A stretch of DNA of 22,873 nucleotides from a virus, in the IMG/VR virus record IMGVR_UViG_3300047678_000044, positions 1 to 22,873 of that record; one strand, written 5' to 3'. Below are positions 6,310 through 10,704 of this stretch, in pieces. Made by a program: the position numbers and the translations under genes. Every line of letters begins with the position of its first letter. Positions within the stretch are counted from its first letter, which is position 1. The notes beneath the pieces are model-generated. The model worked only from the letters and a program-made list of their open reading frames with translations, searched no databases and was not told the origin of the DNA.

Positions 6310-8115
6310 TCAGTTGCGCCGGTTGTTCATTTCGGCCACGCGGTTGTTCGACTCCGCGATCTGCCGGCCGTCCAACATGATCTTGTTGGTGATGGTGAAG
6401 CCGGCCTTGGCCATGTTCGAATCGGTGCTGCCGATCTTGTCGGCGTACTTGCCGATCCAGTCGCCCAGGCCGCTGTTGTAGGCCAGCGTGCCCGCGCCAT
6501 AGCCGGCCGCGCCCGCCAAGCCCGCACCGCCCGCCATCATGGCGAAGCGGCCCGCCGTACCGGCCACACCTGCCGCGCCCAGGGCCGCCGCCGCGCCGCC
6601 GCCACTGGTAACCAGGCCCGTGATGCCCGCTGCGGCCAGCGCCGCCGTGGCTGCGTTAGCGGCGATCTTCAAGCCTTCCATCGCCTCGCCCAGGGCGGGG
6701 TACTTCTGGTAGAGCGCAGTGGTCTGTTCCGCCAGCGCGCCCATCGGGCCGGCGAGCGGGCCGAACAGGGCGGTTTTGGCGAACTCCTGTTCCGAGGCCA
6801 GGCCCTGCGATTTGCTGGCGTAGGTGTCGCCGATGACCGCGAAGTTCTTGTCGATCGCGCCGCCGCCGCCGTTGATGCGGTCCATCAGTCCGCCCAACTG
6901 ATCACCATTGTTCATGATCGCCACCAGCGCCATCAGCGCCTGGCGGTCCTGGATCAGCTTGCCCACCGCCTTGCCCTGCAGAATGTCCGCCATCGCCCCG
7001 TAGGTCGCCTGCTTCTCCTCCGGCGTGCCGGCACGCGACGCCTGGTCGCGCAGCGCCACGTACTGCTTGTCTTTGAGCGCCTCGCCTTTCACCAGCGCGG
7101 TGAACGCGGTCACCGGGTCGATGCCCTGGCTGCGCGCCTTCGAGAGCGTGCCGGACAGATCGATGCCGAGCTTCTTGGCATCGTTGGCGGTGTCCTGGCT
7201 GTTGATCTTGGCCAAGAGGTTCACCAGGTTGTTGCCGGCTTCATCCTTGCTGCCGGCAGTCGTGACCGTGAGCTGGTTCAAGGCCAGCAGGCGCGCGAAG
7301 TCGCCCGTGCCCTTCATGCCCGACATGCGCCCGGCCGCCATCTGCTGTGGCAGCCACTTGGCCATGTCCTTCAGCTCGAAGCCGCCGGCCTGGCCGGCCG
7401 TGAGCGCCATGTCCAGGAGCTGCGGCAATTGTGCACCGCTGATGCCGAAGCTCTGCTTGGCGCGGATCGCGATCTGCGCCAGGGCGTTGGCGTCCGATCC
7501 CGAGGCGGTGGCGCCCTTCACCAGGGAGGGCAGCAGCGCCTTGGATTCGTCGATCGACAGCGCACCGGAGGCGATCAGGGTATCGAGCGCCTCCACCGCC
7601 TGGTCACGCGAGCCGCGACCGGTGCGTACCGCGCCCATGATGGCGCTGTTCATGTCCAGCGCGCCCGCCTTGCGGCCGGCCGTGTCGCGGTCCGCATAGG
7701 CGGTGTTGGCCAAGTGTGCCAGGCGCAGCTCGTAGTCGATCGGCTTTTGCATCTGGTATTTCAGCGCCAGACTGCCCGCCTGCACGCCCTGGAAGGCCAT
7801 GTTGGCACCGCGCAACCCGCCGCGCACCGTGCCCATGTTCCTGCGCCCGAGTTCGCGCATGGCGCGGCCGGCACCGCTGGCGATCTCGCGCAGCAGGCCG
7901 CGCATGGTCATCAGGTCGCTGTTGATGCCGCGCAGCGGGTCACCCCGGCCGATACTGGCCACCGAGCGCGCCGTGTCGTTGGCCGCGCGATCGACGCCCT
8001 TCAACGCCAGCTCCAGCGCCTTGGAGGAGGCTTGCACCTCGCCCAGGGCAGCCTTCAGCGGGCGCGTCAGCTCGTTCTTGAGCTGCAGGCGCATGGCCAG
8101 CGACAGTTCGCTCAT
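6310..8115 (-). CDS. Tail tape measure protein, 601 aa
   Basis: Determines tail length and is released into the host envelope at injection. It lies directly after the chaperone frameshift product (ATGA overlap), the universal tape measure position. It is helical, with coiled N-terminal sequence (MRLQLKNELTRPLKAALGEV) and a long Ala/Gly-rich hydrophobic region at about residues 481-548, the presumed membrane-interacting part. The central region (about 100-480), with motifs such as RTGRGSRDQAVEALD, resembles TP901-type tape measures. At the usual roughly 1.5 A per residue, 601 residues imply a tail of about 90 nm (inference). Confidence 0.93.
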   Translation of the reverse strand: MSELSLAMRLQLKNELTRPLKAALGEVQASSKALELALKGVDRAANDTARSVASIGRGDPLRGINSDLMTMRGLLREIASGAGRAMRELGRRNMGTVRGGLRGANMAFQGVQAGSLALKYQMQKPIDYELRLAHLANTAYADRDTAGRKAGALDMNSAIMGAVRTGRGSRDQAVEALDTLIASGALSIDESKALLPSLVKGATASGSDANALAQIAIRAKQSFGISGAQLPQLLDMALTAGQAGGFELKDMAKWLPQQMAAGRMSGMKGTGDFARLLALNQLTVTTAGSKDEAGNNLVNLLAKINSQDTANDAKKLGIDLSGTLSKARSQGIDPVTAFTALVKGEALKDKQYVALRDQASRAGTPEEKQATYGAMADILQGKAVGKLIQDRQALMALVAIMNNGDQLGGLMDRINGGGGAIDKNFAVIGDTYASKSQGLASEQEFAKTALFGPLAGPMGALAEQTTALYQKYPALGEAMEGLKIAANAATAALAAAGITGLVTSGGGAAAALGAAGVAGTAGRFAMMAGGAGLAGAAGYGAGTLAYNSGLGDWIGKYADKIGSTDSNMAKAGFTITNKIMLDGRQIAESNNRVAEMNNRRN

Positions 8116-8638
8116 GTCTTCTTCCGCTTGGCGTTGACGAAACGCTTGACGCCGGGCTGTTTACCGGCGTCAGGAATCAGGATGTCGACGTACTGGATGA
8201 ACGCCGTCTCGTTCATGGCCAACACCTCGGTCTCGGCAAAGCCACGGCGCATCAGGCCGAGGACGGCCCGGCGGAGGTTGCGGGCGCTGGGCTTGCGTTC
8301 GGGTGAAGCGCCGGCCAGGTCGGGATGCTCGACGCCGGCCAGTTCAAAGGCTTTTTTGCCAGCAGACCTCGGGCCGCCGCGAGCGTCTCGAAGTCGAGTT
8401 CGTCCATCTCGAACACCAGCGCCGTATTGATGTCCTTTGTCGGTATGTCACCGACCGCGACCAACTGGCGGGCGATCTGCGCGCACTCGATCTTGAGGTC
8501 GGAATCGCTGCCCACCTCGTCGAAGGCCGCCAGCGTATCGGCCACCTTCGACCGCCGCAGCTCGAACGCCTGGTGAAGTTTGCCGGCGAACGCCACGCCC
8601 ACTGGCAAGGTGCCCGCGATCTTGTCCAGGACCGTCAC
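8112..8638 (-). CDS. Tail assembly chaperone, -1 frameshift fusion product, about 175 aa
   Basis: Ribosomes slipping back one base at 8357-8351 continue for 79 codons in the -1 frame, beginning AFELAGVEHPDLAGAS and including ARNLRRAVLGLMRRGF and the lysine-rich end RFVNAKRKKT. The stop TGA at 8112-8114 overlaps the tape measure ATG (ATGA). This frame has no good independent start. It is conserved-looking protein sequence placed exactly where lambda G-T and Mu gp41/42-type fusions lie. The fusion would be a minor product that recruits tail tube subunits onto the tape measure. Confidence 0.85.
8252..8638 (-). CDS. Tail assembly chaperone, zero-frame product (Mu gp41-like), 128 aa
   Basis: Starts at GTG 8638 (overlapping the tube stop) with GAGG about ten bases upstream. 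Residues 1-93 form a compact helical domain (AFELRRSKVADTLAAFDEVG; DFETLAAARGLL), as in tail assembly chaperones that coat the tape measure. After the slippery site at codons 94-96 the zero-frame continues for 32 Pro/Ala/Ser-rich residues to a TGA at 8252-8254. That tail looks unselected, as expected beyond a frameshift site. The first domain is shared with the longer fusion. Confidence 0.88.
   Translation of the reverse strand: MTVLDKIAGTLPVGVAFAGKLHQAFELRRSKVADTLAAFDEVGSDSDLKIECAQIARQLVAVGDIPTKDINTALVFEMDELDFETLAAARGLLAKKPLNWPASSIPTWPALHPNASPAPATSAGPSSA
8310..8370 (-). promoter_or_regulatory. Programmed -1 ribosomal frameshift signal (SD-like, A AAA AAG, hairpin)
   Basis: On the transcribed strand an SD-like GAGG (8370-8367) lies nine bases before the heptamer A AAA AAG (8357-8351), which is in register with the zero frame (GCA AAA AAG). 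Eleven bases downstream a hairpin pairs GCCGGCGTCG (8339-8330) with CGAC (8322-8319) and GCCGGC (8315-8310), with a CTG bulge and a 7-nt loop. This is the same three-part layout as the E. coli dnaX frameshift site. Confidence 0.85.
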
Positions 8639-9027: not shown

Positions 9028-9255
9028 TCAGGTGTTGATCTTGACCATCGCGTACCCGGTGCCGTCCGCGTTGATGTGACCGAAGGTTTCGATCTGCTTC
9101 ACCGACTCAGGCGGCATGTTCTCCATGAGCACGCCAGCGGCGGTCTGGATCTGGCCGGCGATCGGGCAGTTGTCGCGGGCGATCTCCAGCATCGAATCGA
9201 GCGCGCGAATGGCTTCCTCGCGGTTGCTGCCGGATGCTTTCAAGTTCCAGCTCAT
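9028..9255 (-). CDS. Hypothetical protein between sheath and tube genes, 75 aa
   Basis: A clean reading frame with its own SD (CGGAG, seven bases before ATG 9255) and a stop 24 bases before the tube start. The predicted order is helix-helix-strand (MSWNLKASGSNREEAIRALD; NADGTGYAMVKINT). Mu has no gene between L and M. The protein could assist tube or sheath assembly or be an independent small cytoplasmic protein. No family is recognised. Confidence 0.75.
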   Translation of the reverse strand: MSWNLKASGSNREEAIRALDSMLEIARDNCPIAGQIQTAAGVLMENMPPESVKQIETFGHINADGTGYAMVKINT

Positions 9256-9267
9256 GTCGGTCTCCGG

Positions 9268-10704
9268 TTAGAGCAGCAGGTCGATGCGGCCGGCGAACAC
9301 GTGCAGGCCGTTCACCACATCGCAGGGGATCTTCGCGTCCAGGCGGTTCGGGTCCTGGCTATCGCGCTCGACGATCAGGCCGGGCAGGTTGGCCGTGACT
9401 TGCTCGATGATCTCCAGCTCCTCCAGCTTGTAGAGCACGTCGATCAGTTCCGAGCGCACGCGGGCGGCGGTCTTGTCGGAGAGCTTCTCGCGCGGGAAGC
9501 GCAGGCTGATGCGCTCGCGGCAGGCCTTGCGCACGTATTCCAGCGTGCGGATGGTGGTCAGGTCGAGCAGCGCGATGTCGGGGATGGCCTGCGCGTCCAC
9601 CGTATAGGTGGTAATCGCCCGCACGATCTGCACCTTGTTGCCGGGGCCGACTTCCAGCGGCGTGCTGCCGTTGTAGAGTGCGCTCTCCTGCTCGACCCGC
9701 CCCAGCCAGTTGGCGAACGGGTTGGGCAGAATGCCGGTCAGCGCCAGGGTGTTGAGCGGCCGGGCAGGATCTTCCTCGCTGGCGATCACGCCGGCATAGG
9801 CCGCCGCGATCTGGAAGGGCATCTGCGGCGCCGAAGGCAGCAACGCCCCGCTGATGCGTCCGCTATTGAGCGCGGCAGCCAGGGTGGTCGAGGTGGCCAG
9901 CGACCCGGTAAAGCCGTAGACGCCGATCGCGCCGCGCTGTTCCAGCGGGCCGGACACGTTGTCCAGGTGGGTGCGCAGCTTCACCAGGCTGGCCGAGTCG
10001 TTCCAGGCGCTGACGATGATGTTGTGGCCCAGGGCAAACACCGCCGCCAGCGGTGTGGCCATGTCCGGGTCGGTCGCGCCGGCCACGCCATCGGCCACCG
10101 CAGCGGTCACGCCGGTGGCGGCCGAAGTGAGCGGCGTGACCACGGTGGAGACCTTGAGCTGATTGCCCTGGGTGCCCTTGTTGCGCGCGGTGAGCGTCAC
10201 CACGCCGGCCACGTTGGCGGCAGTCACCGGCAGGCTCGGCTGTTGCGCAATCGCCGCCACCAGGGCGGCGGCCATCGCGGTGGCGGTGTCGGCCCCGGCG
10301 AAGTTGATCTCCACGTCCTGGCCATTGATGGTGGCCTTGAGGTTGCCGGCGGCGGCGGCCGGGCCGGTCACCGTGATGGTGTCGGTGGCGAAGGTGCCGC
10401 CGCCCACATCATCCATCGCGATGGCCGAGAGCGCCACATACGGGTTGGCGCGCATGCACGCCTGGCACATCAGGTAGAGCTGCGAGCCGATGCCGAAGAG
10501 CGTGGCGGCCTGGGCGTCCGAGAAGATGTCGACCACCACGTTGGCGGCCTGGCTGCCGGCGGCGGTCTTCTGGCCGACGATCAACACCTTCTGCAGGTTG
10601 GTCGGCAGCGTACGCACCGCCAGCTTGGTGTTGAACTCGAAGTACTTGCCCGGCTTGCGGATGCTCGTCGGGATGTTGTCGAAGCTGATGTTGGGGCTGG
10701 CCAT
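9268..10704 (-). CDS. L: Contractile tail sheath protein (Mu gpL), 478 aa
   Basis: Forms the outer contractile cylinder that drives the tube through the host envelope; its presence shows a myovirus tail. The N-terminus ISFDNIPTSIRKPGKYFEF and the C-terminal domain with DALL-type helices (DLTTIRTLEYVRKACRERI, then SLRFPREKLSD) are typical of Mu-like sheaths. The mid-region is a variable, Ala/Val/Thr-rich domain exposed on the sheath surface. A clear AGGAG SD precedes ATG 10704. Length is close to Mu gpL (about 495). Confidence 0.95.
   Translation of the reverse strand: MASPNISFDNIPTSIRKPGKYFEFNTKLAVRTLPTNLQKVLIVGQKTAAGSQAANVVVDIFSDAQAATLFGIGSQLYLMCQACMRANPYVALSAIAMDDVGGGTFATDTITVTGPAAAAGNLKATINGQDVEINFAGADTATAMAAALVAAIAQQPSLPVTAANVAGVVTLTARNKGTQGNQLKVSTVVTPLTSAATGVTAAVADGVAGATDPDMATPLAAVFALGHNIIVSAWNDSASLVKLRTHLDNVSGPLEQRGAIGVYGFTGSLATSTTLAAALNSGRISGALLPSAPQMPFQIAAAYAGVIASEEDPARPLNTLALTGILPNPFANWLGRVEQESALYNGSTPLEVGPGNKVQIVRAITTYTVDAQAIPDIALLDLTTIRTLEYVRKACRERISLRFPREKLSDKTAARVRSELIDVLYKLEELEIIEQVTANLPGLIVERDSQDPNRLDAKIPCDVVNGLHVFAGRIDLLL

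What the first reader, a model, noticed from the sequence alone, without database searches (positions are those of the whole stretch)
8112..8638. dnaX-like -1 frameshift cassette in the tail assembly chaperone gene
All three parts of a strong -1 programmed frameshift are present: an SD-like GAGG, an in-register A AAA AAG, and a bulged GC-rich hairpin 11 nt downstream. The -1 frame runs 79 codons of protein-like sequence and ends in an ATGA overlap with the tape measure. The 32 residues after the site in the zero frame look unselected. Mu itself is reported to use a -2 shift at the equivalent genes, so this Mu-like phage would have switched mechanism while keeping the product.
Basis: partly seen in the sequence, partly recalled or inferred. 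Interest (0 to 1): 0.65.

Follow-up and report, generated by a model that had tools for sequence, protein, structure and literature searches.

The report
Conserved frameshift in phage tail chaperone
A Mu-like phage uses a standard ribosomal slip site (A AAA AAG, one base back) to make a short and a long version of its tail-assembly helper protein; this is the usual arrangement across its relatives, although one related branch of the same gene appears to slip one base forward at a different site instead.

Summary
On the minus strand the tail assembly chaperone gene (GTG 8638 to TGA 8252) has one in-register X_XXY_YYZ heptamer in its overlap with the next frame: A AAA AAG at 8357-8351. GAGG lies 9 nt upstream and a GC-rich bulged stem about 10 nt downstream. 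The -1 frame runs 79 codons to 8112 and ends in ATGA with the tape measure. Relatives settle it: of 67 loci (this window among them, near-duplicates included) with a recognisable -1 extension, 66 carry an in-register heptamer (51 A6, 15 G GGA AAG). In 13 close pairs, changes in the overlap fall at third positions of the -1 frame (10/5/34), so the -1 frame is selected and the zero-frame tail is not. SD-like motifs peak at 9 nt. The hairpin is real but not exceptional. The 'switched mechanism' claim fails: -1 is the common state of this clade, also in named phages; Mu's -2 (GGGGGC) belongs to a separate branch. The finding is a new member of a known kind. The surprise lies next door: a sister TAC lineage (22 distinct loci) has its extension in the +1 frame, always with a single in-register TTT_C (17 of 22 TTT_CGA), like influenza PA-X.

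The parts
8252..8638 (-). zero-frame tail assembly chaperone (gpG-like; Mu gp41 equivalent), GTG start overlapping the tube gene stop; 96 codons to the slip site plus a 32-residue unselected tail
   Evidence: phrog_508 tail assembly chaperone E=2.6e-18, the family that holds Mu gp41; profile built without the window E=1e-22; PF10109 20.4 bits, below its 25-bit cut-off
8351..8357 (-). slippery heptamer A AAA AAG, in register
   Evidence: conserved at the same place in relatives
8367..8370 (-). SD-like GAGG, 9 nt upstream of the heptamer
   Evidence: SD cores peak at 9 nt among 66 distinct sites (30/66 at 6-14 nt against 10.7% in control positions)
8313..8340 (-). bulged GC-rich stem-loop starting 10-11 nt after the heptamer
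   Evidence: -17 to -22 kcal/mol, z -1.5 to -2.6; moderate
8112..8351 (-). -1 frame extension (gpT-like), 79 codons plus stop; stop overlaps tape measure ATG (ATGA)
   Evidence: extension profile built without the window finds this frame only, E=1e-7
6310..8115 (-). tail tape measure protein
   Evidence: phrog_794 E=2.7e-126, PF10145
8635..9003 (-). tail tube protein
   Evidence: phrog_185 E=7e-24
9268..10704 (-). tail sheath protein (gpL-like)
   Evidence: phrog_165 E=2e-165

Best explanation
This is a programmed -1 ribosomal frameshift that makes two tail assembly chaperones from one gene. Most ribosomes read through A AAA AAG and stop after 32 more codons, giving the short chaperone (about 128 aa). 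A minority slip back one base, with two Lys-tRNAs re-pairing on AAA AAA. They are helped by the GAGG pairing with 16S rRNA 9 nt upstream and probably by the downstream stem. These give a fusion of about 175 aa whose C-terminal domain is in the -1 frame. By analogy with lambda gpG/gpGT, the short form coats the tape measure and the fusion recruits tube subunits. Shown by sequence: the gene, site, frames and selection on the -1 frame in relatives, and the lineage-wide conservation. Inferred: that slippage occurs on the ribosome, its efficiency, and the protein roles.
For: Gene order sheath-tube-TAC-tape measure with phrog_508 identity. The extension is recognised in the window by a profile built without it. 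In-register heptamer in 66 of 67 loci whose extension lies in the -1 frame, against about 7e-5 per codon in neighbouring genes. Changes in the overlap of 13 close A6 pairs fall 10/5/34 at -1-frame codon positions 1/2/3. SD-like cores at 6-14 nt in 30/66, peak at 9 nt, matching the published 9-14 nt for -1 sites (PMC5009743). Same arrangement in named hosts: Denitromonas (A AAA AAA), Chromobacterium, Cupriavidus, Burkholderia, Desulfovibrio.
Against: No protein or reporter data. The hairpin is weakly significant and sits slightly further away than in dnaX. The window has no close relative (TAC at most 46% identical over 87 columns), so selection was measured in relatives and not in this phage. 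A AAA AAG shiftiness depends on the host's Lys tRNAs, and the host is unknown.
Confidence: 0.93

Rival explanations
1. Transcriptional slippage on the A run makes mRNAs with one extra or fewer A, giving the same two proteins without ribosomal shifting.
For: The site is a run of six A; many relatives have eight (AAA AAA AAG). Thermus dnaX is a known case of transcriptional slippage (PMC5009743).
Against: A homologous branch of 15 loci has G GGA AAG with no long homopolymer at the same place, and SD-like motifs sit at the distance typical of -1 ribosomal shifting; neither is expected for polymerase slippage. Six A is short for it.
Confidence: 0.04
2. Sequencing or assembly error: one base is wrong in the A run and the gene is a single fused ORF.
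For: Metagenomic-type contig; homopolymer.
Against: The same two-frame layout with the same heptamer is found in dozens of independent contigs, isolate genomes and named phages, and the zero-frame stop position varies freely.
Confidence: 0.01
3. The -1 ORF is a separate gene with its own start and no shift is needed.
For: The downstream ORF is annotated as a separate hypothetical protein in SuMu, Mannheimia and Klebsiella phages.
Against: Conserved in-register heptamers, third-position bias of the -1 frame within the overlap, and precedent in lambda, P2 and Mu all point to a fusion. In the deposited phages the annotated 'separate' ORFs begin well after the site.
Confidence: 0.02

Closest known systems
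Lambda gpG/gpGT and the conserved dsDNA phage tail chaperone frameshift (Xu, Hendrix and Duda 2004, as summarised in PMC5009743)
   Same: Same position between tube and tape measure, -1 shift, short and long product
   Different: Slip site A AAA AAG; sequence family phrog_508; contractile Mu-like tail
Bacteriophage Mu gp41/gp41'
   Same: Same protein family (phrog_508; Mu zero-frame protein found by our profile, E about 1e-9) and same gene order
   Different: Mu and its Shewanella and Vibrio relatives have GGGGGC (-2 in Mu by the literature); the window has a -1 heptamer
E. coli dnaX frameshift cassette
   Same: A AAA AAG, SD-like motif upstream at comparable distance, stem downstream
   Different: Unrelated gene; in dnaX the shift makes the shorter product, here the longer; the stem here is a little further away (own knowledge for the dnaX layout)
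Haemophilus phage SuMu, Mannheimia phage 3927AP2, Klebsiella phage ST405-OXA48phi1.1 TAC loci
   Same: A AAA AAG in register and -1 extension
   Different: Deposited records list two separate genes and do not mark a frameshift

Membership tests
Tail assembly chaperone (TAC, phrog_508 / gp41-like) | Homology of the zero-frame protein | tested here: met
   phrog_508 E=2.6e-18; same family as Mu gp41, E=6e-49
Tail assembly chaperone (TAC, phrog_508 / gp41-like) | Curated Pfam cut-off for PF10109 Phage_TAC_7 | tested here: not met
   20.4 bits against 25; Mu gp41 itself scores 24.7, so the cut-off misses that known chaperone too
Tail assembly chaperone (TAC, phrog_508 / gp41-like) | Lies between tube and tape measure genes | tested here: met
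-1 programmed frameshift (X_XXY_YYZ type) | In-register heptamer inside the frame overlap | tested here: met
   unique in the overlap
-1 programmed frameshift (X_XXY_YYZ type) | Shifted frame under purifying selection | tested here: met
   in relatives, 10/5/34 differences at codon positions 1/2/3 of the -1 frame in the overlap; window extension found by profile
-1 programmed frameshift (X_XXY_YYZ type) | Upstream SD-like stimulator at 9-14 nt | tested here: met
   9 nt in the window; enriched with a peak at 9 nt in relatives
-1 programmed frameshift (X_XXY_YYZ type) | Downstream structure more stable than expected | tested here: inconclusive
   z -1.5 to -2.6 in the window; mean z -1.07 over 66 distinct sites against -0.27 at control positions
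-1 programmed frameshift (X_XXY_YYZ type) | Fusion protein made, dependent on the heptamer | not testable with these tools
   needs a reporter or mass spectrometry
Mu-type -2 frameshift (GGGGGC) | GGGGGC site with extension in the +1/-2 frame | tested here: not met
   the window extension is in the -1 frame only

The most novel reading that the evidence does not exclude
Within one homologous tail chaperone family the slip direction has changed more than once: -1 (A AAA AAG or G GGA AAG) in most lineages including this window, -2 (GGGGGC) in the Mu branch, and +1 at UUU_CGA in a sister lineage whose named members come from Desulfobacula, Syntrophobacterales, Geobacter and Nitrospirae bins. The last would be a bacterial-virus counterpart of the influenza PA-X site: P-site UUU slips to UUC while the rare codon CGA waits. 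It then spread between phages with the TAC gene. I found no report of it in the held literature.
Probability: 0.6. Interest if true: 0.55.

Novelty: new member of a known kind. Interest (0 to 1): 0.35.

Why it matters
The window's own cassette is ordinary: it extends the lambda/P2-type -1 tail chaperone shift to a broad group of Mu-like phages in which deposited records do not mark it. The comparative result has more use. A single homologous gene with -1, -2 and +1 solutions is a natural experiment on how a phage changes recoding direction while keeping the same two-product output. It also offers bacterial UUU_CGA sites on which the PA-X type of +1 shift could be studied with bacterial ribosomes.

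Tried and rejected
DNA-level search of phage records with the TAC region gave only a 53-nt match, and searches with the TAC protein gave almost nothing, so relatives were gathered through tape measure and sheath. A mechanism switch in this phage was rejected. Independent repeated origin of +1 was considered because +1 loci fall in three places on the sheath tree. The TAC tree puts all +1 genes on one side of a single branch (SH-aLRT 99; zero domain alone 78), so transfer of the gene is the simpler reading. -2 rather than +1 for the TTT_C group was judged unlikely: no G run or other common -2 site was seen, a single in-register TTT_C is present in all 22, and +1-frame stops just upstream in L090/L097 plus zero-frame stops 15 nt downstream in L093, L141 and L146 confine the shift to that spot. 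Burkholderia KS10, reported to lack a frameshift (PMC2628397), was inspected; no clear site was found. Structure prediction was not used: the fusion cannot be submitted, and the separate parts would not bear on the question.

Full report
What is there. The window is a 22,873-base virus record whose tail genes run on the minus strand in Mu order: sheath (10704-9268), tube (9003-8635), tail assembly chaperone (8638-8252), tape measure (8115-6310), DNA circularisation protein N, gp44/gpP-like hub. The chaperone frame starts GTG at 8638, overlapping the tube stop, and stops at 8252. It contains GCA AAA AAG, i.e. A AAA AAG in register at 8357-8351, the only X_XXY_YYZ heptamer in the overlap of the two frames and the only AAAAAAG in the window. 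The -1 frame continues for 79 codons and its TGA overlaps the ATG of the tape measure gene. GAGG stands 9 nt upstream. A stem with a small bulge starts 10-11 nt downstream.

Is it more than chance. Neighbouring sheath, tube and tape measure genes of the same loci hold 9 in-register A6[A/G] in 133,646 codons, so fewer than 0.01 would be expected in the overlap. Profiles built from relatives without the window find the zero frame (E=1e-22) and, in all six frames of the window, only this -1 frame for the extension (E=1e-7). The window differs from relatives in a longer linker between the zero domain and the conserved extension core (71 nt against mostly 26-32 nt).

Relatives. Searches with the tape measure and sheath gave 160 loci in viral contigs, and a scan of bacterial genomes gave 36 loci with named hosts. 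Zero and extension domains were both recognised in 89 viral loci, the window included: 68 with the extension in the -1 frame and 21 in the +1/-2 frame (near-duplicate contigs not removed). After weak extension matches (score 20 or less) were dropped and named phages added, 67 loci have the extension in the -1 frame and 66 of them carry an in-register heptamer: 50 A AAA AAG, 1 A AAA AAA, 15 G GGA AAG. Fifteen further loci carry A6[A/G] with an open -1 frame but an extension too divergent for the profile. The same holds in isolates: A AAA AAG in Chromobacterium aquaticum and C. sphagni, Cupriavidus basilensis, Burkholderia aenigmatica and B. multivorans; A AAA AAA in Denitromonas halophila; G GGA AAG in Desulfovibrio sp. 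DV. Haemophilus SuMu, Mannheimia 3927AP2 and Klebsiella ST405-OXA48phi1.1 also have A AAA AAG, although their records list two separate genes.

Selection. In 13 separate close pairs of the A6 group, differences between the site and the zero-frame stop fall 10, 5 and 34 at codon positions 1, 2 and 3 of the -1 frame. Upstream in the zero frame they fall 36, 14 and 147. Its length also varies freely between loci. This was measured in relatives; the window has no close enough neighbour.

Stimulators. SD core tetramers lie 6-14 nt before the heptamer in 30 of 66 distinct sites against 10.7% of control positions, with a peak at 9 nt, the window's own spacing. The review PMC5009743 gives 9-14 nt for -1 sites. 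The downstream stem is less convincing: z -1.5 to -2.6 in the window and 21st of 120 windows in its ORF. Over relatives the mean z is -1.07 against -0.27 at control positions. The G GGA AAG branch has much stronger stems, six of them with z of about -3.4 to -5.

The claimed switch. Mu, Shewanella MuM16-2 and Vibrio martha have GGGGGC at the end of the zero frame and form one branch. All other loci on the tree lie on the other side, with A6 -1 sites in its early branches. The window therefore carries the common state of its clade. Whether -1 or -2 came first at the root cannot be read from these trees; -1 in lambda, P2 and others makes it likely that Mu's -2 is the derived one (inference). -1, -2 and +1 tail chaperone shifts are already on record in different phages (PMC5009743), and RcapMu is annotated with a potential -1 shift before its tape measure.

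The +1 lineage. In 22 distinct loci whose extension lies in the +1/-2 frame there is exactly one in-register TTT_C, 12-21 nt after the zero domain, and in 17 of them it is TTT_CGA. Sheath and tube genes of these loci have TTT_C 8 times, and CGA 16 times, in 12,828 codons. A +1-frame stop just upstream in L090/L097 and zero-frame stops 15 nt downstream in L093, L141 and L146 confine the shift to this spot. This is the layout of the influenza PA-X site UCC_UUU_CGU (PMC3498833). These TACs are one side of a branch on the TAC tree (SH-aLRT 99) but lie in three places on the sheath tree, so the gene has probably moved between phages. L201, from a Desulfobacula bin, has an in-register A AAA AAG upstream of its TTT_CGA, possibly a relic of the -1 state. 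I found no report of this site in phages in the held literature, which does not include most subscription papers.

Verdict. The finding is a correct reading of a conserved -1 frameshift cassette, a new member of a known kind. The mechanism-switch story is wrong for this phage. The comparative set does reveal direction changes in the family, of which the +1 UUU_CGA lineage is the part worth pursuing.

Noticed in passing
L090, L091, L093, L097, L104, L105, L108, L110, L111, L117, L122, L124, L131, L132, L135, L137, L141, L146, L154, L162, L176, L201 (TAC 3' part): Sister TAC lineage with the extension in the +1 frame and a single in-register TTT_C (17/22 TTT_CGA), often with GGAGG/AGG 5-7 nt upstream; likely +1 frameshifting like influenza PA-X.
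   Followed up: yes
L042, L043, L046, L057, L058, L113-L116, L125, L156 and others: G GGA AAG replaces A AAA AAG in one branch, with a long stem about 5 nt downstream that is strongly stable in several members (z down to -5).
   Followed up: partly
L201, TAC 3' part: A Desulfobacula MAG has an in-register A AAA AAG upstream of TTT_CGA, with the extension in the +1 frame: a possible relic of the -1 state.
   Followed up: no
L171 (Burkholderia KS10) 501-1055: Reported to lack a frameshift, but a long ORF in another frame overlaps the chaperone 3' end and stops near the tape measure start; no clear slip site found.
   Followed up: partly
L184, L185, L187, L189, L191-L193, L195, L197-L199, L206: Chromobacterium-type and related loci keep a related sheath and tube, but no TAC was recognised after the tube; in the two inspected (L184, L206) none was seen there.
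   Followed up: partly
L175, L177, L200 after the tube gene: A different chaperone-like family stands after the tube, again with a possible -1 extension after an A run.
   Followed up: no
9028-9255 (-): A 75-aa ORF between tube and sheath genes that is absent at this place in Mu; function unknown.
   Followed up: no
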